A stretch of DNA of 64,000 nucleotides. It comes from Globisporangium splendens (taxonomy: Eukaryota > Oomycota > Peronosporomycetes > Pythiales > Pythiaceae). Shown piece by piece: positions 30,664 to 41,234 of this stretch. The stretch covers positions 62,001 to 126,000 of the forward strand of contig VFIW01000004.1 of NCBI GenBank assembly GCA_006386115.1. The letters run 5' to 3'. The notes below the pieces were generated by a model that searched no databases, had not been told where the DNA came from, and saw nothing but the letters and a program-made list of their open reading frames with translations. Numbering within the stretch: position 1 is the first letter of the stretch; each line of letters opens with the position of its first letter. A program made the position numbers and the translations under genes.

Positions 30664-31001
30664 TGTAAGATGGCGCTATTCACAACAGTCCCTTAAACAC
30701 TGCATACATGCTTGTGCCAGAGGAAGCGATTCTCCTGACTTGGAGGGAGAAGGGATGACTTGAGGGCTTGGTGGTGAAATTGCAACTGGATTAAATGTAG
30801 GTATGGTTCCTGTCGCTACTCACAAATGAGCCTCAGGGGATCCTAGAGGCTTTACAAATAAAACCTAAACATGCACAATAAAACCTATGAATCTGATATA
30901 TAAACCTAGGGTACACTGAGGTTGAGCCAAGGGGATCTTCTAGAAACATGAACTTGAAGTCTTGTATAAAATCCCTGCGAAGTGATTGGCTCCCGCCACT
31001 T
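30664..31001. repeat. Truncated LTR of the same Ty3/gypsy family
   Basis: Begins TGTAAGATGGCGC and follows the left end of the LTR at 31975 through the shared blocks CTTGTGCCAGAGGAAGCGAT, ATAAAACCTATGAATCTGAT and GTGATTGGCTC. Similarity stops near 31001; the other half, including the CRE-like palindromes and terminal TTACA, is missing. Left flank is CGAGT; no partner duplication can be tested. Confidence 0.85.
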
Positions 31002-31829
31002 GCTTCAGAAGTTTTATCCATTTGCACTACCCGAACAATCATGGGTTAAGAGTGCCTTACAAATGCTAAATAACACTAAATACAATAGTGAGAGTGTATT
31101 CTATTACTACCGGGATTACCAGCGATTTTTGATAGAGCAAGAGTGAGAGTATTTTGTCTGGGAAAAGTAGTAACCACTACGTACTATTCGGTCTGGTTTG
31201 AACAAGTGGTTCACTTTCTGTTTGTCCTTGGTCTAAATTCCAGTCCGTTTGTGGCGCAGCGTCGGCTCAAATATCAGTGGCCACAAGATAACCACCGTCA
31301 ACATTTTTGCTAGCCTGAACAAACAAGCCCGTACAGTAGGTGGACATGGCATATATTAGAATAACAAATGGTTGACTCACCTTCGGCTCGAAGCGACCTG
31401 GACAACCCGGCTGCGAGAGCTCTGGTTGTAGACGATTGTAGTCTGAGAAAGCGCGGTCACATGTGTGAGATCACCAAAATCAGCGACAGATATCTGAGAG
31501 TTTGCTAACGAGGCTATGCATAGATTGGTGTCTTTCTGTTTCAGAAATGCTTCAAAGAGTACGTCGAAGCAACGATGGGTTGATGTGGAGACCACCGCAA
31601 AGCTTAGTGCGATTCAGTTTCAGAAACACCTCAAAGAATACTCTCAAAGAGGTAATGTCCATCACGTGTCCACGCCTGATCAGTCCACACAAATAGACCA
31701 CGTGACCAAGGTGCGATCTGTATCGCTAAAAAAGACGTGCTCAATCTGCGACCAAGGTGACTGAGCTATCAACTTTGCGGCAAAGTCGCATACCAGACAT
31801 ATAAAACAATGTATTAAGCACAATGGACT
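31002..31829. other. Unassigned, old transposon debris
   Basis: AT-rich sequence between two LTRs. Plus-strand frames such as 31516-31764 (QRWVDVETTAKLSAIQFQKH) look protein-like but carry no known domain. Probably remains of an older element. Confidence 0.35.
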
Positions 31830-31974: not shown

Positions 31975-32623
31975 TGTAAGAGGGTGCTGTTCACAACAGT
32001 CCCTCAAACACGGCACACACGCTTGTGCCAGAGGAAGCGATCTCCCGACTTGGAGGGAGGAAGAAGACTTGAGGGCTTGGAGGAAAATTTGCAACTGAAT
32101 TAAAAATGGTTATGGTTCCTGTCGCTACTTACAAATGAACCCCAAGGGATCCTACAGGTTTTATAACTAAAACCTAAATATACACAATAAAACCTATGAA
32201 TATGATATATAAAACCTTGGGTACACTGAGGTTGAACCTACGGGATCTTCTAGAAGCTTGAACTTCAAGTCTTGTTTAAACCCTGCAAAGTGATTGGCTC
32301 GCGCCACTCACTCCAGGTGGCAGACACACGTCGGTCTCGTCGCCAGTCCAGTTTCCCAAGCAGGAACCATCACTCAGTACTTGATTAGTACATGGATGTT
32401 ATCACTCTGTACTGATTAGTACATGAGAACAACATTCTGCACTGATCAGCACAGAGAACACTCGTGACGTCATCGAATGACGTCACACGTGCATGTGGGG
32501 ACTGTATTACTGTAATCCCTTTTGTTATTTGTGTCTCCACAATGCACGCTGAAGGTGGTGTGTTCCACACTAGATCTGGGAACAGATCCACCTTCATGTG
32601 ATGGCTGGTTATAGCCCATTACA
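31975..32623 (-). repeat. 3' LTR of the Ty3/gypsy element
   Basis: 649 bases; read on the minus strand it starts TGTAATGGGC at 32623 and ends CTCTTACA at 31975. The U3 part holds two TGACGTCA palindromes and three stem-like GTAC/GCAC repeats; a TATA-like TTATATATC lies near 32208 on the minus strand. It differs from the 5' LTR at several dozen positions including small indels (count approximate, by eye). Confidence 0.95.
32465..32485. promoter_or_regulatory. Paired CRE-type palindromes (TGACGTCA) in LTR U3
   Basis: Two perfect TGACGTCA octamers at 32465-32472 and 32478-32485, separated by TCGAA, are kept in all three LTRs that retain this region (also near 39471-39491 and, inverted, near 40732-40752). 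TGACGTCA is the classical site for bZIP factors of the CREB/ATF type. Just outside lie three related imperfect palindromes built on CTGATTAGTAC, CTGATTAGTAC and CTGATCAGCAC. Confidence 0.6.
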
Positions 32624-32637
32624 TCATCCCCTCCTTA
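32624..32637 (-). other. Polypurine tract
   Basis: Minus-strand AAGGAGGGGATGA directly precedes the 3' LTR, the expected place for plus-strand priming of reverse transcription. Confidence 0.8.
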
Positions 32638-32699
32638 AAGTCACAAGTACCTTGCGTACTTTTGCAGACCTTTCGGAGCAGTTCACTTTCCATTCGGCA

Positions 32700-33842
32700 A
32701 TGAAGCGACCAAGTGACCAAGTGAACCGTGAAGAACGTCCGTCGTCCAAGCGACAGCGGACAGCTCCAGAACTCTTCGACATTTCTCCCATTCTGAAGAA
32801 GAAGGGGGAGCTCGAGTTCTACAAGGAGCGGTTCTTCAGTTGGCGTCGGATCAACGATCGCGATGATCCGAACCAACACGTCGCAGCCCAGAGAGACTCA
32901 TGGCGAACATTTGTTCGTCTTGAGAACGAGAACAAGATGGAGCGTCTTCTTCGTCGTGGCAATGCTCGTGCCGAAAGAAGAACTCCTGCTGACGACAGAG
33001 CAAATCCTAGCTCTGGTCGTCGTAGTGTCGCCCCTGGCAACGCTACAAGCAGTTCTCATAGCTGCGGACCACGTCGGGAACATCAGACTCCAATGTCTGA
33101 CGAGGCTCCCACGTGTCCAAGCTCGGTGGATATCCACGCCACCGAACTCTGTAGAAGCGTTGATGGTTCAACCGCTTCTTTCCTCGACGATGAGTCGGTC
33201 TATCTTCGTGATCAACAATCGACTCAACCACCCAGCGATGCTCTCCCTGAGAGTCTAACAACGGGGGTGGGGCTGAACGAGAAAACGATTGAGCGACTCT
33301 GGAAGTGGAAGAGTGCTCACCGTGGGCAAATCGAGGCGCTGCAGCAGCGTTGTTCGACGCTTGAGGAACGCTGCGAGAGTCTCGAGAACCTTGTCGCCGA
33401 TCACGAGTCGAAGATCGACGATCTGACAGAAGGTTTTGTCCAGTGTTCGGCTTTGGAGTCCCGTTACGAGGAACGGTTCCAACAGGTTCAGGACGAACTT
33501 GTTCGACTCCGGAAGAACGAGAAGTCTCGTGAGTTGGCTCACGATCGCCTGTTGCGCTCTGTGGAAGAGGCAGGTTCGGCTCTCGAGGTACTTCGTGGTG
33601 AGTACCATTCTCGTCTTCAAGCGTTGGAGTCAGTGAAGGACCAATCCTTCGACGTCCTGCAACTCCTGTACGCCGAGAAGAATCTCCAGAGCGATGAGCT
33701 GTTTGCTCTTCGCAATCAAGTGGAGAAACTTCACGATCAGCTCGATCGTTTGCGGAAGATCTCGCAGGATCCGCAGATCCACTTGGAAGGTAAGGCTTTA
33801 GTCTACCCACATAAAATGTCGGGTGTAGACGCATGCGTGTAG
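32700..33842 (+). CDS. Antisense coiled-coil ORF of the retrotransposon, overlapping the pol 3' end
   Basis: ATG at 32700, 77 bases inside the left LTR, opens 380 codons to TAG at 33842; the frame is open even from 32598 within the LTR. Residues 1-60 are basic (MKRPSDQVNREERPSSKRQR, a nuclear-signal-like run), and a LEFYKERFFSWRRI helix and Arg-rich part follow. About residues 80-185 are Ser/Pro-rich and disordered, and about 190-360 form a strong coiled coil (WKSAHRGQIEALQQRCSTLE, LVADHESKIDDL, LRNQVEKLHDQLDRL). The frame runs antisense to pol codons over 33043-33842. The coiled coil lies opposite the disordered linker of pol; the chromodomain of pol lies opposite the disordered part here. 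Additional antisense ORFs are known in some plant Ty3/gypsy elements. Function unknown; a transcript from the LTR on the plus strand is assumed. Confidence 0.65.
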   Translation: MKRPSDQVNREERPSSKRQRTAPELFDISPILKKKGELEFYKERFFSWRRINDRDDPNQHVAAQRDSWRTFVRLENENKMERLLRRGNARAERRTPADDRANPSSGRRSVAPGNATSSSHSCGPRREHQTPMSDEAPTCPSSVDIHATELCRSVDGSTASFLDDESVYLRDQQSTQPPSDALPESLTTGVGLNEKTIERLWKWKSAHRGQIEALQQRCSTLEERCESLENLVADHESKIDDLTEGFVQCSALESRYEERFQQVQDELVRLRKNEKSRELAHDRLLRSVEEAGSALEVLRGEYHSRLQALESVKDQSFDVLQLLYAEKNLQSDELFALRNQVEKLHDQLDRLRKISQDPQIHLEGKALVYPHKMSGVDACV

Positions 33843-36800
33843 GTATGTCTAGCGTGTGGGCATCACCATTGCATTTCACTACCTTGAACGGTCCAATGAA
33901 CCTTGGCAGAAGCTTCGAGCTTCCCAAGTTGGACACTGCATGTTCAGGCAGGTTCGCCGTGCTAAGTAATACAAGATCATTGATCTTATACACTTGCTTG
34001 TTCTTCCTTCCGCTCTTGTCTGCTTGTTCCTTTTGCAGATCCTGAGACTTCGCGATTGCGTCTCGAACAAACCTCACAACGGCTTGTCTCCTCACGATAA
34101 AGTCATCGACTTGCTGCTCTTCACGACTTGTTAGGTCGTCGAGGGGTTTCATCGAGTCAAAATTCGCTTTCAACTCGGAAGCAGCATTCAGGTCGTAAGA
34201 CGACTTCGGCTTGTTTCTGTGAGCCGGAGTCCCTCCCCCACTTAAGGTAGAGACCTCACCCATTATGGAAGCAGGCACTCGGGGATGAATGCCATAGTTC
34301 ACATAAAATGGAGAGTGACCTGTCGAGACATGCGTGGAGTTGTTCAACGCAAACTCGGGAAGAGGGAGAAACTCACTCCACTCTTTGAAAGACGTTGCGT
34401 AGCTGCGCAACACGTCTTCGAGGACGCGATTCACTCGCTCTGTTTGACCGTCCGTTTCAGGGTGTGCCGCTGTTGACATGGACAACTTGGTGTCCAGAAG
34501 TCCGAACAGTGCACGCCAGAACTTGGACGTGAAACAGGTGTCACGGTCAGAAACGATCTCGACTGGTAGTCCGTGTAGACGGAATACGACGTCTACAAAG
34601 ACCTTGGCAGTCTTCTCAGCAGAGATCTTGTCCGAAACAGGCGCAAGATGAACCATCTTGCTGAATCGGTCCACAAACACAAGGATGCCATTGCGTCCAC
34701 GTGTGTCTCTTGGAAGTCCGAATATGAAATCCATACTCACAGACTTCCAACTGTCCGATGGGACAGCCAATGAACGAAGGGGTGCCTGCGTGGAACCAGA
34801 AGGTTTCACTCGTTGGCAGATCTCGCAAGTCCTCACATACTTGCGCACCCACTTGTACATGTGTGGCCAGTAGTAATCTCGAGACAAGTTGAGAAACGTT
34901 TTCTCACGTCCGAGATGGCCACCAGAAGGACTGTCATGGTACTCATACAAGAGTCGATGACGCAGACCTTCGTCGTTGGGAACAACAACCCTTGCTGTAT
35001 CCCCTTGTTCGACCGCATAGTACAACAACCCATTGTGTACTCGGAAGCGGTGAACTCGCGATCTTGCGCGCGACGGAAGACCTTGCAGTGCTTTGTCGGA
35101 AGGGTCCTTGAAGTACTTCAGCAAGTCCTGACATGTTTCGTCAAACTTGTACCCTTCGACGATCTCTTCTCGCACTGTAGTCGCAGCTCGCACCGCGATC
35201 GCTTGAACATCTTCACAGAGTCGACACGCTCCGTCCGTGCCTTCACTCTTGGTCTTCGGATCGTAATCCGGACGTCTTGACAGCGCATCGGCTAAGATGT
35301 TCGTCTTGCCTGGCTTGTAGTGTACAACGAAGTTGTACTCTGCAAAGAAGGAGAACCATCTCGCCATTCTTTGCGACAAATGAGGAGTCTTCACTGCCGT
35401 ACGCAGAGATGCGTGATCAGTGTAGATAGCAAAGCGCTCCTCGCCAAGCAGATACACACGGAACTTGACCAAAGAATACTTCATCGCCAGAAGTCCCTTG
35501 TCGTGGACTGGGTAGTTCCGTTCTGCGGGTCGGAGTTGTCGCGACTGATACGACACAACTCGCTCATGACCCTCATCATCGTGCTGCATCAATGCGCAAC
35601 CGATGGCATAGTCGCTCGCATCGCAGACGACGTGGAATGGCTTGTCGTGGTCTGGCAGAGCCAACACAGGAGCTTCTCGAAGACTCCTCTTGACTTCTTC
35701 GAATGCCGTCTGATGGTCTTTCGACCACTTCCACTCAACGTCTTTCTTCAAGAGCTGTGTGAGGGGTTGCACCAACGCTGCATAATTGCGCGTGTACTTG
35801 TGCAAGTAGTTGGCTAGACCCAACAATTGTCGCAGCTGTTTGACGTTCTGAGGCACTGGCCAATCGTCAATAGCTTTGACCTTCTCCGGATCGACTCGAA
35901 CACCGTTCTTGCCCACAAAACAACCGAGAACAGGGATCTCGGGGGCGAAGAACATGCACTTCTTCAAGTTTGCGTAGAGTTTGTTCTCACGCATGGCCTG
36001 GAAGACTCGACGAAGATGATCGAGATGAACATCGACATCAGACCTCCCATTCGTGGCCTTACTATGAACGAAAATATCATCAAAGTAACTTGGTGCGAAT
36101 GTTCGCAGAGGACGAAGAACGTTCATGACCATTCGATTGAAGGTCGCAGGAGCATTCTTCAGTCCCTGCGGCATCACTAACCATTCCCACAGCATACCAC
36201 TCGGGGTACTCACTGCGGTTAGTGGGACATCGTCTTCGCGCATTCGAATCTGATAGAACCCATCTTTCAGATCGATGGCACTAAAGACGGTGCTGCCAGC
36301 CATTCCATCAAGGATCATGTCCTTGCGTGGAACCGGAGTCTGGGCTGGAATTGTCGCGTCGTTCAGCTTGTTGAGAGCGTGAACAATGCGCCAACCTCCA
36401 GTTGCCTTCTTCACACAGAAAGTGGGGCTGCAATGCGGAGACTTGCTCTCCCGCACATGACCAGCCTCAGCACGTTGTGCAAAGAACTCGTCGATCGCCT
36501 CGACTTGTTCCTTTGGCAACGGCCACTGCCTTGTGATGCAGTACTTCGTGCCAGGAAGTACATCAATCTCATGACGAATGCCTCTATCGAATGGCAATTC
36601 GTCCGGCACCTTGTCAGGGAAAATGCCTTCATATTCCCTGGCAAGCGCATACACGGGGTTCTTCTTGAGGGCGTCCCACGACTGCTCCTCGAGCCTTTCC
36701 TTCCGTGTCTTTTCGTCCAACACATCTGCATCCGCACTCGATGCTGTGTTGACGAAGCCTTCGTCGACCATTCCGACGATCACACACACCTGCGCAATAT

Positions 36801-38862
36801 CGCCTCTCGCTAGGCTGCGCTCCAGTGTCTTCTTGCTCATCGATGGCAAGGAAATCAATTCTTCGACTGAACTTGGAGGATTTTCAATCTTCATGTGACG
36901 GATTACATCCACGTCACCTTCTTCATTGTAGACCGCGATATTCGCAAACTCGCTTGGAATGTCTTGTGCTTGGACACTCCCTTCGTCATCACCACTTGTA
37001 CCTTGATCAGGGGTACTCAAAACTCTTGGCGAAAAACTTTTCTTGCTGGTCTTCTTCTTCTTGTCTTGGGAAGGGTGTTTGTTCCACTTCCATTTATTCT
37101 TGTCAACGCCATCGCGAACCTTCTCGTCGTCGATGGCAAAGGAGACAGTCTTTTTCTGGCGCCTGACTGCTCCACCTCCGTTCGTCGTCTTCAAAATGGG
37201 TACCGCTTGTGAACATGGGGGGCCATCGCACACCGCAATATCACAAGGGTCATCTGGGATCTCTTCCACAGATGTATACACCCATACCACTTCATCCGTT
37301 GTTGTGCTGCACAAGTCAACATCGCGTGACTTGCCAACGGAGATCTTCATATTCATCCAGTCAATGCTAGGTTGATAACGCTTCAACCACGGCATTCCCA
37401 GGATGATGTCAAACTTGTCATCGAGGTCGAGTAAAATGAACTCGTCTTCACCTCGGAAATCTTCACACTTGATCGCCAAGCGCACCACGCGCTTCGGCAT
37501 CTTCACAGTTGACCCATTTGCCAACCGGACAATCATCACCTTTTCTTCATTCGCATCAGGCACGAAGACACCATGCCTGATGATCACTTCATTTCGAACA
37601 AAGTTGTTCGACGCACCAGTGTCAACCAAGGCTCGTAGAGGCGTTGCAATACCGTCTACATGAACTTTGTGAACGATCAAACTTGACGTTTGACTGACAC
37701 TCTTCTCACTCATAGTGGAAACTGCATGTGCTTGATGCACATGGGGGTCAGAGTCCTGTGTCTCCACAACGTCCACAGTCCTCTTTTCCGGGCCAGTAGG
37801 AGGCCCCACCCCTACTGTCCATTCCCGTTTTTTTGGCCCAGGTGACCGCTCGAACCGACGACCGTAAGAACGATCGCGGTTGTTCGAACGAGCACCCTGT
37901 GTCGTTTGCCGACCCGGCAAAGACACCTTGCAGTTCCGAGCAATGTGACCGGGCTTCCCGCAACGGAAACACTTCCCATTGTTGCGAGGACGCTCATTTC
38001 CAGGCGTGGAAATGTACGAGATGTCCATGGGCTCGGGACCGTCATACACGGCATTTGATTGCCGTATTGGTCTCGACGCAAGGCCATGGAATTTCGCTTG
38101 CTTGATGCTGAACTCTTCTTGCATCGCACGTTCGATGGCTTCGTCCAGCGTCTTGGGATACTCGCGGAACAGTTGGTTCCGAATCGGACCATCGTTCAGA
38201 CCCGTCATGAACGTCACGACTTGCGTCGGAACGTCAATCGGCTCGTCAACGATGCTCGACACCAAGCAACGAGCACATTGTGCATACGAGTGAAGGTCGA
38301 AACGGCCTTGACGAAGCTTGAGGAACTCGGCGCGTGCACGGAACTCACTCTGTGGAGGTTCAAACGCCTTCTTGAGTTCGGTCTTGAAATGGTCGTAGCT
38401 GGGGAAGCAGTTTAGATCCACTAAACGCTTGCCATACGCCCAGCTCTTCGCACGACCCGCAAGGTTGGACATCGCGAACAACACTTGCTGCGAAGGGTCT
38501 CGCAGTTGCCTTGCAGCGATGGCTGCATCCAACTCGACGAACCATCGTGAGAGGGGTTCGTTCTCTCCGCCGCGATACGGAGAGACGTCGAGCTTCAGTG
38601 GCACCGTCCTGATTGAGGAAACAGGGGTTGCGAGCTGCTTCCGGGAGGACATGATCTCGTGGTGCATGAAGCTGACCACCGCGCTCTTCTGGTCCTCCGG
38701 AGACGCCGATCGAAGTAGACTGACCACAGCAGCCTCTCCGATGACATCTCGCATGCGCTCAAGCGCCATCCACTCATGAGAAGACAAGTGAGGGAAATCA
38801 TCAATAGTCAACTCGACAGTTTCCGGTACCGCTGGACCGAGTGGGGTTCCTGTAGCATCCAT
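33043..38862 (-). CDS. Ty3/gypsy Gag-Pol polyprotein with C-terminal chromodomain
   Basis: One unbroken frame of 1939 residues from ATG 38862 to TAG 33043. Approximate positions: Gag retrotransposon domain 90-260; zinc knuckle CFRCGKPGHIARNC near 298; aspartic protease ALVDTGASNNF near 408; reverse transcriptase with QGLKNAPATFNR and SYFDDIFVHS near 924; RNase H CDASDYAIGCAL near 1083; integrase with H-H-C-C finger (HLGREK to CEICQRVK), catalytic D in MDFIFGLP near 1376, D in VSDRDTCF, and E in DGQTERVN near 1474; GPY/F module FIGPFKVVK to LKPYL near 1670; a disordered Ser/Arg/Pro linker of about 200; chromodomain RWVVESIVDHE to WEPRQTL near 1878-1935. Gag and Pol share one frame, with no frameshift. 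All catalytic residues seen are intact, so the copy could be active if transcribed. Confidence 0.97.
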   Translation of the reverse strand: MDATGTPLGPAVPETVELTIDDFPHLSSHEWMALERMRDVIGEAAVVSLLRSASPEDQKSAVVSFMHHEIMSSRKQLATPVSSIRTVPLKLDVSPYRGGENEPLSRWFVELDAAIAARQLRDPSQQVLFAMSNLAGRAKSWAYGKRLVDLNCFPSYDHFKTELKKAFEPPQSEFRARAEFLKLRQGRFDLHSYAQCARCLVSSIVDEPIDVPTQVVTFMTGLNDGPIRNQLFREYPKTLDEAIERAMQEEFSIKQAKFHGLASRPIRQSNAVYDGPEPMDISYISTPGNERPRNNGKCFRCGKPGHIARNCKVSLPGRQTTQGARSNNRDRSYGRRFERSPGPKKREWTVGVGPPTGPEKRTVDVVETQDSDPHVHQAHAVSTMSEKSVSQTSSLIVHKVHVDGIATPLRALVDTGASNNFVRNEVIIRHGVFVPDANEEKVMIVRLANGSTVKMPKRVVRLAIKCEDFRGEDEFILLDLDDKFDIILGMPWLKRYQPSIDWMNMKISVGKSRDVDLCSTTTDEVVWVYTSVEEIPDDPCDIAVCDGPPCSQAVPILKTTNGGGAVRRQKKTVSFAIDDEKVRDGVDKNKWKWNKHPSQDKKKKTSKKSFSPRVLSTPDQGTSGDDEGSVQAQDIPSEFANIAVYNEEGDVDVIRHMKIENPPSSVEELISLPSMSKKTLERSLARGDIAQVCVIVGMVDEGFVNTASSADADVLDEKTRKERLEEQSWDALKKNPVYALAREYEGIFPDKVPDELPFDRGIRHEIDVLPGTKYCITRQWPLPKEQVEAIDEFFAQRAEAGHVRESKSPHCSPTFCVKKATGGWRIVHALNKLNDATIPAQTPVPRKDMILDGMAGSTVFSAIDLKDGFYQIRMREDDVPLTAVSTPSGMLWEWLVMPQGLKNAPATFNRMVMNVLRPLRTFAPSYFDDIFVHSKATNGRSDVDVHLDHLRRVFQAMRENKLYANLKKCMFFAPEIPVLGCFVGKNGVRVDPEKVKAIDDWPVPQNVKQLRQLLGLANYLHKYTRNYAALVQPLTQLLKKDVEWKWSKDHQTAFEEVKRSLREAPVLALPDHDKPFHVVCDASDYAIGCALMQHDDEGHERVVSYQSRQLRPAERNYPVHDKGLLAMKYSLVKFRVYLLGEERFAIYTDHASLRTAVKTPHLSQRMARWFSFFAEYNFVVHYKPGKTNILADALSRRPDYDPKTKSEGTDGACRLCEDVQAIAVRAATTVREEIVEGYKFDETCQDLLKYFKDPSDKALQGLPSRARSRVHRFRVHNGLLYYAVEQGDTARVVVPNDEGLRHRLLYEYHDSPSGGHLGREKTFLNLSRDYYWPHMYKWVRKYVRTCEICQRVKPSGSTQAPLRSLAVPSDSWKSVSMDFIFGLPRDTRGRNGILVFVDRFSKMVHLAPVSDKISAEKTAKVFVDVVFRLHGLPVEIVSDRDTCFTSKFWRALFGLLDTKLSMSTAAHPETDGQTERVNRVLEDVLRSYATSFKEWSEFLPLPEFALNNSTHVSTGHSPFYVNYGIHPRVPASIMGEVSTLSGGGTPAHRNKPKSSYDLNAASELKANFDSMKPLDDLTSREEQQVDDFIVRRQAVVRFVRDAIAKSQDLQKEQADKSGRKNKQVYKINDLVLLSTANLPEHAVSNLGSSKLLPRFIGPFKVVKCNGDAHTLDIPTRMRLHPTFYVGRLKPYLPSGSADPARSSANDRADREVSPLDCEEQTAHRSGDSSRRTGVAGRRRIGPSLTPTLEDENGTHHEVPREPNLPLPQSATGDREPTHETSRSSGVEQVRPEPVGTVPRNGTPKPNTGQNLLSDRRSSTRDRRQGSRDSRSVPQASNNAAAAPRFAHGEHSSTSRVAQSFSRSAPPPLLDSQGEHRWVVESIVDHEDRPTHRRGKKRLNHQRFYRVRWRGYPPSLDTWEPRQTLESDVPDVVRSYENCL

Positions 38863-38985: not shown

Positions 38986-39629
38986 TGTAAAAGGGCGCTG
39001 TTCCAAACAGTCCCTTAAACACGGCACACACGCTTGTGCCAGAGGAAGCGTCTCCCGACTTGGAGGGAGGAAGGAAGACTTGAGGGCTTGGTGGTAAAAG
39101 TGCAACTGAATTGAAATGCTTATGGTCGCTACTTGTAAATGAACCCCAAGGGATCCTACAGCTTTTATAACTAAAACCTAAACATACACAATAAAACCTA
39201 TGAATCTGATATATAAAACCTTGGGTACACTGAGGTTGAACCTACGGGGTCTTCTAGAAGCTTGAACTTCAAGTCTTGTATAAAACCCCTGCAAAGTGAT
39301 TGGCGCGAGCCACTCACTCCAGGTGGCAGAGACACGTCGGTCTCGTCGCCAGTCCAGTTTCCCAAGCAGGAACCATCACTCAGTACTTGATTAGTACATG
39401 GATGTCACCGCTCAGTACTGATTAGTACATGAGAACGACATTCTGCACTGATCAGCACAGAGAACACTCGTGACGTCATCGAATGACGTCACACGTGCAT
39501 GTGGGGACTGTATTACTGTAATCCCTTTTGTTATTTGTGTCTCCACAATGCACACTGAAGGTGGTGTGTGGCAGACTAGATCTGGGGACAGATCCACCTT
39601 CATGTAATGGCTGGTTTCAGCCCATTACA
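38986..39629 (-). repeat. 5' LTR of the Ty3/gypsy element
   Basis: 644 bases, TGTAAAAGGG at 38986 to CCCATTACA at 39629. Same family and orientation as 31975-32623. It lacks several bases seen in both the left LTR and the inverted solo LTR (for example the GGTTCCT of GGTTCCTGTCGC), so it is not the closest relative of the left LTR. Confidence 0.95.
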
Positions 39630-40594: not shown

Positions 40595-41234
40595 TGTAAT
40601 GGGCCATAACCAGCCATTACATGAAGGTGGATCTGTTCCCAGATCTAGTCTGCCACACACCACCTTCAGTGTGCATTGTGGAGACACAAATAACAAAAGG
40701 ATTACAGTAATACAGTCCCCACATGCACGTGTGACGTCATTCGATGACGTCACGAGTGTTCTCGTGCTGATCAGTGCAGAATGTTGTTCTCATGTACTAA
40801 TCAGTACAGAGTAATGACATCCCATGTACTAATCAAGTACTGAGTGATGGTTCCTGCTTGGGAAACTGGACTGGCGACGAGACCACGTTGGTCTGCCACC
40901 TGGATGAGTGGCACGAGCCATCACTTTGCAGGGATTTAAAATAAGCTGAGTTCAAGCTTCTCAAGATCCCGTAGGTAACCTCAGTATACCCAAGGTTTTA
41001 TATATCAGATTCATAGGGTTTTTTTGTGTATATTTAGGTTTTTAGTTATAAAAGCTGTCGGATCCCTTGGGGTTCATTAGTAAGTAGCGACAGGAACCAA
41101 CCATTTTTAATTCAGTTGCAAATTTTCCTCCAAGCCCTCAAGTCTTCTTCCCCCTCCAAGTCGGGAGATCGCTTCCTCTGGCACAAGCGTGTGTGCCGTG
41201 TTTGAGGGACTGTTGTGAACAGTGCCCTCTTACA
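40595..41234 (+). repeat. Inverted solo LTR of the same family
   Basis: 640 bases, TGTAATGGGCC at 40595 to CTCTTACA at 41234, i.e. opposite to the two LTRs of the full element. No interior follows on either side. Flanks are ATATC (left) and GAGCG (right), so there is no own target duplication. By eye it shares several states with the left LTR (CGATCTCCCG, GGAGGAAAATTTGCAACTG, TGTCGCTACTTAC) that the right LTR lacks. Confidence 0.95.

What the first reader, a model, noticed from the sequence alone, without database searches (positions are those of the whole stretch)
32700..33842. Antisense coiled-coil ORF overprinting the chromodomain end of a Ty3/gypsy polyprotein
Seen: a 380-codon plus-strand frame runs antisense to 800 bases of the intact pol frame. 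Order alternates: its coiled coil (about residues 190-360) faces the disordered linker of pol, while the pol chromodomain faces its own disordered stretch. Codon first positions of the two frames pair with each other. This complementarity suggests both strands are constrained, with the pol linker evolved to tolerate the ORF. Known: additional antisense ORFs occur near the 3' end in some plant Ty3/gypsy elements, but not to my knowledge overlapping a chromodomain. Inference: the ORF encodes a regulator or structural partner driven from the left LTR on the plus strand.
Basis: partly seen in the sequence, partly recalled or inferred. Interest (0 to 1): 0.85.

Follow-up and report, generated by a model that had tools for sequence, protein, structure and literature searches.

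The report
Conserved antisense gene overlapping retrotransposon chromodomain
In a water mould, a family of jumping genes carries what looks like a real second gene written backwards across the end of its main gene, with selection keeping the backward gene's long coiled rod and the main gene's chromatin-reading domain in separate stretches of the same DNA.

Summary
The window is from Globisporangium splendens, an oomycete. A Ty3/gypsy element on the minus strand carries a plus-strand ORF (32700-33842) facing the last 800 bases of pol. The family form has 355 codons: in 40 of 48 copies read, the ORF is undamaged from ATG through codon 355; 37 of these stop there, while the window copy and two others run on to 380.

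Homologous proteins persist down to 43% identity. A second family, about 61% identical, keeps the same antisense layout.

Over the coiled-coil half, substitutions follow the antisense frame and pol looks unconstrained. Over the chromodomain the pattern reverses, on few changes. Upstream pol, as control, behaves as normal pol. So both strands are coding, but constraint is shared out along the DNA rather than doubled.

Function is inferred: probably a nuclear, oligomeric accessory or regulatory protein expressed from the 3' LTR; no transcript evidence was available. Antisense accessory ORFs are a known class; the conserved overlap with a chromodomain and the oomycete host are what differ.

The parts
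32700..33764 (+). antisense gene, family form (355 codons)
   Evidence: undamaged in 40 of 48 copies read; homologs down to 43% identity
33765..33842 (+). extension of the window copy: site of the family stop (33765-33767, CAG here) and 24 further codons to the stop at 33840-33842
   Evidence: shared variable sites over 33768-33842 lie only at ORF position 2 = pol position 3 (0/7/0), as if only pol is constrained there
32700..32759 (+). two conserved basic clusters, resembling a bipartite nuclear localisation signal (motif recalled)
   Evidence: alignment A1
32775..32984 (+). small helical N-terminal domain, no fold match
32985..33248 (+). disordered segment of the antisense protein; from 33055 on it faces the pol chromodomain
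   Evidence: pLDDT under 50
33321..33764 (+). long coiled-coil helix, facing the pol linker
33043..38862 (-). gag-pol frame, 1939 codons (gag, zinc knuckle, protease, RT, RNase H, integrase, SH3-like, chromodomain)
33055..33234 (-). pol chromodomain; constraint here follows pol
33235..33764 (-). pol linker; constraint here follows the antisense gene
31975..32623 (-). 3' LTR of the element, presumed home of the antisense promoter (not shown)
38986..39629 (-). 5' LTR, 93% identical to the 3' LTR
32465..32485 (.). twin TGACGTCA palindromes (CRE-like, name recalled) in the LTR
   Evidence: pair present in 39 of 48 copies, single in 7, none in 2; same spacing in one second-family LTR
32542..32667 (+). 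possible short LTR exon (32542-32557) and intron (to 32667) fitting gene models that begin MHAEGD-LSEQF
   Evidence: read by eye; TTTTGCAG in 46 of 48, exact donor context in 27 of 48 copies; no RNA evidence seen

Best explanation
The ORF is a genuine accessory gene of this retrotransposon lineage, encoded antisense to the 3' end of pol and kept by selection. SHOWN: conservation between copies and families, purifying selection on the antisense frame, and constraint that passes from the antisense gene (over the pol linker) to pol (over the chromodomain). PREDICTED: a small helical domain, a disordered linker and a long coiled coil. INFERRED: an antisense transcript starts in the 3' LTR, perhaps spliced from a short LTR exon; the product enters the nucleus through its basic N-terminus, oligomerises through the coiled coil and acts in trans on the element, most likely by modulating LTR transcription or copy number. 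The two genes can share DNA because each keeps a flexible stretch where the other keeps a folded one. Selected protein-coding gene: about 0.95. Nuclear regulator rather than structural or integration partner: about 0.45. The confidence below is for the whole statement.
For: Undamaged ORF in 40 of 48 copies. Omega-like ratios for variants in 2 or more copies: ORF outside pol 0.35, ORF inside the overlap 0.57, pol over the same bases 0.97. Linker, family 1 versus 2: divergence 0.26/0.20/0.39 at ORF positions 1/2/3; chromodomain 0.15/0.25/0.12, i.e. reversed. Synonymous-in-ORF changes exceed, and synonymous-in-pol changes fall below, expectation over the linker (57 vs 38.3; 31 vs 42.4), the reverse over the chromodomain (6 vs 8.0; 16 vs 8.2); contrast Fisher p 0.003 between families, 0.002 within. 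Upstream pol control 0.08/0.03/0.24 at pol positions 1/2/3. 78 homologous proteins. Second family keeps ORF and pol frames overlapped. 134 of 150 scored matches of both families show no stop over the matched part of codons 1-195. Predicted coiled coil and disorder in the matching places.
Against: No transcript or peptide seen. Copies were picked by similarity to the ORF protein, which favours intact ones; 60 of 108 were not read. Counts ignore shared ancestry. Changes non-synonymous in both frames are not depleted over the linker between families (59 vs 58.9 expected; 14 vs 21.4 for shared variants within family 1). The chromodomain reversal alone is only p about 0.05. Singletons in the non-overlapped ORF are as constrained as 2-4-copy variants (0.47 each), so the post-insertion reading of singletons is not clean. 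Three sister copies carry an 8-base frameshift beside the ATG. The N-terminal domain matches no known fold, no DNA-binding domain was recognised, and the regulatory role rests on layout and analogy.
Confidence: 0.5

Rival explanations
1. Structural or integration partner: the coiled-coil protein assembles with Gag or the pre-integration complex, or carries it into the nucleus, rather than regulating transcription.
For: Long coiled coil with weak profile matches to coiled-coil proteins, LINE-1 ORF1p among them (E 0.016); basic N-terminus. A nuclear-entry role has been suggested for plant antisense ORF products (PMC7264820 section 7).
Against: An antisense transcript starting at the LTR would be made apart from the genomic RNA, which suits a regulator better (inference); matches to coiled coils say nothing about function.
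Confidence: 0.35
2. Only an antisense RNA matters (for example as source of small RNAs); the open frame is incidental.
For: Antisense transcripts with regulatory roles of their own are described for other elements (PMC7264820 passages).
Against: Codon-position pattern, low omega-like ratios outside pol, shared in-frame 3-base indels, conserved family stop and protein homologs at 43-52% identity.
Confidence: 0.03
3. Chance open frame, kept open by pol codon usage and recent spread of copies.
For: Antisense runs up to 591 bases exist elsewhere in this pol.
Against: 11 of 20000 synonymous resamplings stay open; over the linker pol position 2, not 3, varies most, the opposite of what pol constraint gives; conserved second family.
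Confidence: 0.02
4. Origin by capture of a host or viral gene next to the 3' LTR, with the overlap formed later by extension, rather than by overprinting of pol. This concerns origin, not present function.
For: The N-terminal third lies outside pol and folds as its own domain. Capture is one proposed origin of antisense ORFs in plant elements (PMC7264820 passages).
Against: No homolog outside this family at E <= 0.001 in two searches (in 45 only the 7998 candidates sharing most words were scored). Which frame is older was not settled.
Confidence: 0.3

Closest known systems
Antisense additional ORFs (aORF-3R) of plant LTR retrotransposons: Grande gene23, RIRE2, Retand, PvRetro13 (PMC7264820 sections 5 and 7 and passages; PMC11963269 passages)
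   Same: Antisense to gag-pol at the 3' end, in most copies, conserved between families; some products nuclear (Grande) or with an SMC domain (PvRetro13); regulatory role suggested, function unknown.
   Different: Those are described as lying between pol and 3' LTR (2.9-6.6 kb long in Retand elements); here about two thirds of the gene overlaps pol, including a chromodomain. No TRP28 or SMC match among the Pfam families listed. Host is an oomycete.
Boty-like elements of Botrytis with antisense gene brtn (Zhao et al. 2011, original not seen; PMC4227169, PMC8365987 passages)
   Same: Ty3/gypsy-type gag-pol with a chromodomain plus an antisense extra gene.
   Different: Fungal host. Sequence of brtn and any overlap with pol not seen; homology not tested.
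HTLV-1 HBZ and APH-2/3/4, HIV-1 ASP (PMC10186651 passages)
   Same: Antisense protein genes of LTR elements, expressed from the 3' LTR; HBZ has spliced forms, a leucine zipper and represses the 5' LTR through CREB-type factors.
   Different: No bZIP match here among listed Pfam families, no homology found; expression and activity unknown. The twin TGACGTCA sites in the LTR are only suggestive.
Oomycete chromodomain Ty3/gypsy elements such as Chronos (PMC5348765 passages)
   Same: Oomycete Ty3/gypsy elements with a chromodomain.
   Different: The listing gives 0 occurrences of 'antisense' in that paper; relation to this lineage by RT tree not tested.

Membership tests
aORF-3R (antisense additional ORFs of LTR elements) | antisense to gag-pol, at the 3' end of the element | tested here: met
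aORF-3R (antisense additional ORFs of LTR elements) | lies between pol and 3' LTR, apart from pol | tested here: not met
   722 of 1065 bases of the 355-codon gene overlap pol
aORF-3R (antisense additional ORFs of LTR elements) | present in most copies and conserved between families | tested here: met
   40 of 48 copies read undamaged; second family
Retand-type TRP28 protein | TRP28 domain (PF04195) | tested here: not met
   not among families listed for P0001 (E up to 1) nor for the first of 12 homologs (first 25 of 43 families shown for the rest)
HBZ-like antisense bZIP factor | bZIP domain | tested here: not met
   no bZIP family in the lists (same limits)
HBZ-like antisense bZIP factor | transcription from the 3' LTR and repression of the 5' LTR | not testable with these tools
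   no RNA or reporter data held
Boty brtn | sequence homology to BRTN | not tested
   its sequence was not held; two protein searches listed no named fungal protein
Ty3/gypsy element with chromodomain | gag, protease, RT, RNase H, integrase, then C-terminal chromodomain in pol | tested here: met
   Pfam
Chromovirus lineage proper | position in the RT tree | not tested
   no tree was made

The most novel reading that the evidence does not exclude
An oomycete retrotransposon lineage has evolved an HBZ-like feedback loop independently of retroviruses: a nuclear coiled-coil protein, made antisense from the 3' LTR, acts on the bZIP-type factors that bind the LTR's conserved twin TGACGTCA sites, while its gene has grown over the pol chromodomain so that self-regulation and integration targeting are tied to the same DNA.
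Probability: 0.15. Interest if true: 0.88.

Novelty: new variant of a known kind. Interest (0 to 1): 0.64.

Why it matters
Antisense gene overlaps in cellular mobile elements are seldom backed by substitution data on both strands. Here a high-copy element is a natural experiment: many copies, two families and distant homologs show constraint passing from one strand to the other within a few hundred bases. It extends antisense accessory genes of LTR elements to an oomycete, and makes the open question of what such genes do testable in a 53 Mb genome.

Full report
What is there. The window lies on a contig of Globisporangium splendens, an oomycete: homologous proteins carry that name and lie on contigs whose lengths match the held genome, for example 1208163 and 1715059 bases. 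A Ty3/gypsy element sits on the minus strand: LTRs at 31975-32623 and 38986-39629 (93% identical) and one 1939-codon gag-pol frame, 33043-38862, ending in a chromodomain. On the plus strand an ORF starts at 32700, 76 bases beyond the inner edge of the 3' LTR, and runs to 33842; 800 bases are antisense to pol.

Other copies. A genome search gave 108 scored matches of 485 candidates. In 40 of 48 the ORF is undamaged from ATG through codon 355; 37 of these stop at the place of window codon 356, while the window copy, L012 and L028 run to 380. So the family gene has 355 codons, and it ends before the SH3-like domain of pol (pol residues 1629-1691). The eight damaged copies are L002, L008, L013 (a shared 8-base insertion beside the ATG), L023, L026, L038 (early stops), L046 (frameshift) and L048 (1-base deletion at the last codon). 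Pol over 33043-33767 has an early stop in 5 of 48, a lost terminal stop in 1 and a frameshift in 1. Selection of copies by protein similarity favours intact ones. Indels shared between copies in the part outside pol are two of 3 bases (12 against 36 copies, and 3 copies) and the 8-base one.

Selection within the family. With the window copy as reference, variants in two or more copies give omega-like ratios of 0.35 (ORF codons 1-114, outside pol), 0.57 (overlapped ORF codons) and 0.97 (pol, same bases); for 5-42 copies 0.23, 0.41, 1.02; for 2-4 copies 0.47, 0.79, 0.99; for singletons 0.47, 0.71, 1.36. Shared variable sites at ORF positions 1/2/3 are 13/18/37 over the linker, 8/11/4 over the chromodomain and 0/7/0 beyond the family stop. 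ORF position 3 faces pol position 2 and ORF position 2 faces pol position 3, so the linker varies as ORF, the other two as pol. Control, pol 33843-35300 in the same 48 copies: 69/51/195 at pol positions 1/2/3.

Selection between families. L049, from a second family, holds an antisense ORF of 349 residues from its ATG and a pol frame ending in a chromodomain. Divergence from the window copy at ORF positions 1/2/3: linker 0.26/0.20/0.39, chromodomain 0.15/0.25/0.12, outside pol 0.29/0.29/0.48; upstream pol at pol positions 1/2/3: 0.08/0.03/0.24. Double-frame counts agree on the contrast (Fisher p 0.003 between families, 0.002 within), but changes that are non-synonymous in both frames are not depleted over the linker between families (59 against 58.9), and the chromodomain alone gives p about 0.05. 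Amino-acid identity between families: linker, ORF 108 of 176 and pol 83 of 176; chromodomain, ORF 38 of 59 and pol 48 of 60. Shared ancestry is not corrected for.

Depth. A protein search listed 78 homologs. Seven full-length ones at 43-52% identity (337-386 residues) come from short unnamed contigs of sources jgi, ena and lgn, probably metagenomes. A profile search listed 82, five of them new and shorter, and no other named organism (only the 7998 candidates sharing most words were scored). For the seven I asked whether the facing residue pairs could still encode the window's chromodomain: 45-51 of 59-62 positions are compatible, about 15 under shuffling; the linker gives 91-105 of 161-170, about 43-51 under shuffling. 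Part of this is shared ancestry. In the stretch FYRVRWRGYPPSLDTWE, 14 of 17 positions are compatible in 7 of 7, while some other positions are compatible in 0-2 of 7. This suggests, without proving it, that a chromodomain still faces the gene there; their DNA could not be fetched.

Anatomy of the product. AlphaFold2 gives a small helical N-terminal domain, disorder at 95-183 and a helix at 208-355; overall pTM is low (0.28), as expected for a rod with loose parts. The disordered part is what faces the chromodomain. The N-terminal domain alone gives pTM 0.65 and no PDB match at E <= 0.001. Two basic clusters at the N-terminus recur in the aligned homologs.

Expression clues, none decisive. The LTR carries two TGACGTCA palindromes 13 bases apart: the pair is in 39 of 48 copies, one site in 7, none in 2, and the same spacing is seen in one second-family LTR. 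Some GenBank gene models begin MHAEGD-LSEQF, which by eye fits a short LTR exon spliced at TTTTGCAG (acceptor in 46 of 48 copies, exact donor context in 27 of 48). I do not know whether RNA supports these models.

Mechanism. I favour a nuclear, oligomeric accessory protein made antisense from the 3' LTR that tunes the element in trans. The coding claim is strong; the role is inferred from layout, basic N-terminus, coiled coil and analogy with HBZ/APH proteins (PMC10186651, passages) and plant aORFs (PMC7264820, sections 5 and 7 and passages). A structural or integration-complex role fits nearly as well.

Novelty. Antisense accessory ORFs are known in plant elements and, with a chromodomain pol, in fungal Boty (PMC4227169, passage; original paper not seen). 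In ten answered searches of open-licence papers I met none described as overlapping a chromodomain with constraint divided between the strands, nor one in an oomycete. Hence: new variant of a known kind.

Noticed in passing
window 30664-31008, 31975-32623, 38986-39629, 40595-41234: Four LTR copies of this family, the last inverted; the element's LTRs are only 93% alike and its flanks do not match as target-site duplications, so it may be nested or recombinant.
   Followed up: partly
L012, L028 (and possibly C184:809832): L012 and L028 share a pol stop 44 codons before its end, inside the chromodomain, yet keep the antisense frame open to 380 codons: a hint of spread without a complete chromodomain.
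   Followed up: no
P0046 in alignment A1: By eye, its N-terminal part is second-family and its C-terminal part first-family: recombination between families inside the antisense gene.
   Followed up: no
G000 C148:69608-70033: A match to residues 1-142 of the second-family protein lies in an 1804-codon open frame.
   Followed up: no
P0040: A GenBank gene model joins a copia-type N-terminus (PF13961, PF14223) to the C-terminal part of the antisense protein; possibly a model artefact.
   Followed up: no
G000, for example C140:144536-145129: A sister element family (51 matches at 83-100%) whose 3' end could show whether the antisense gene is older than the split; not read.
   Followed up: partly
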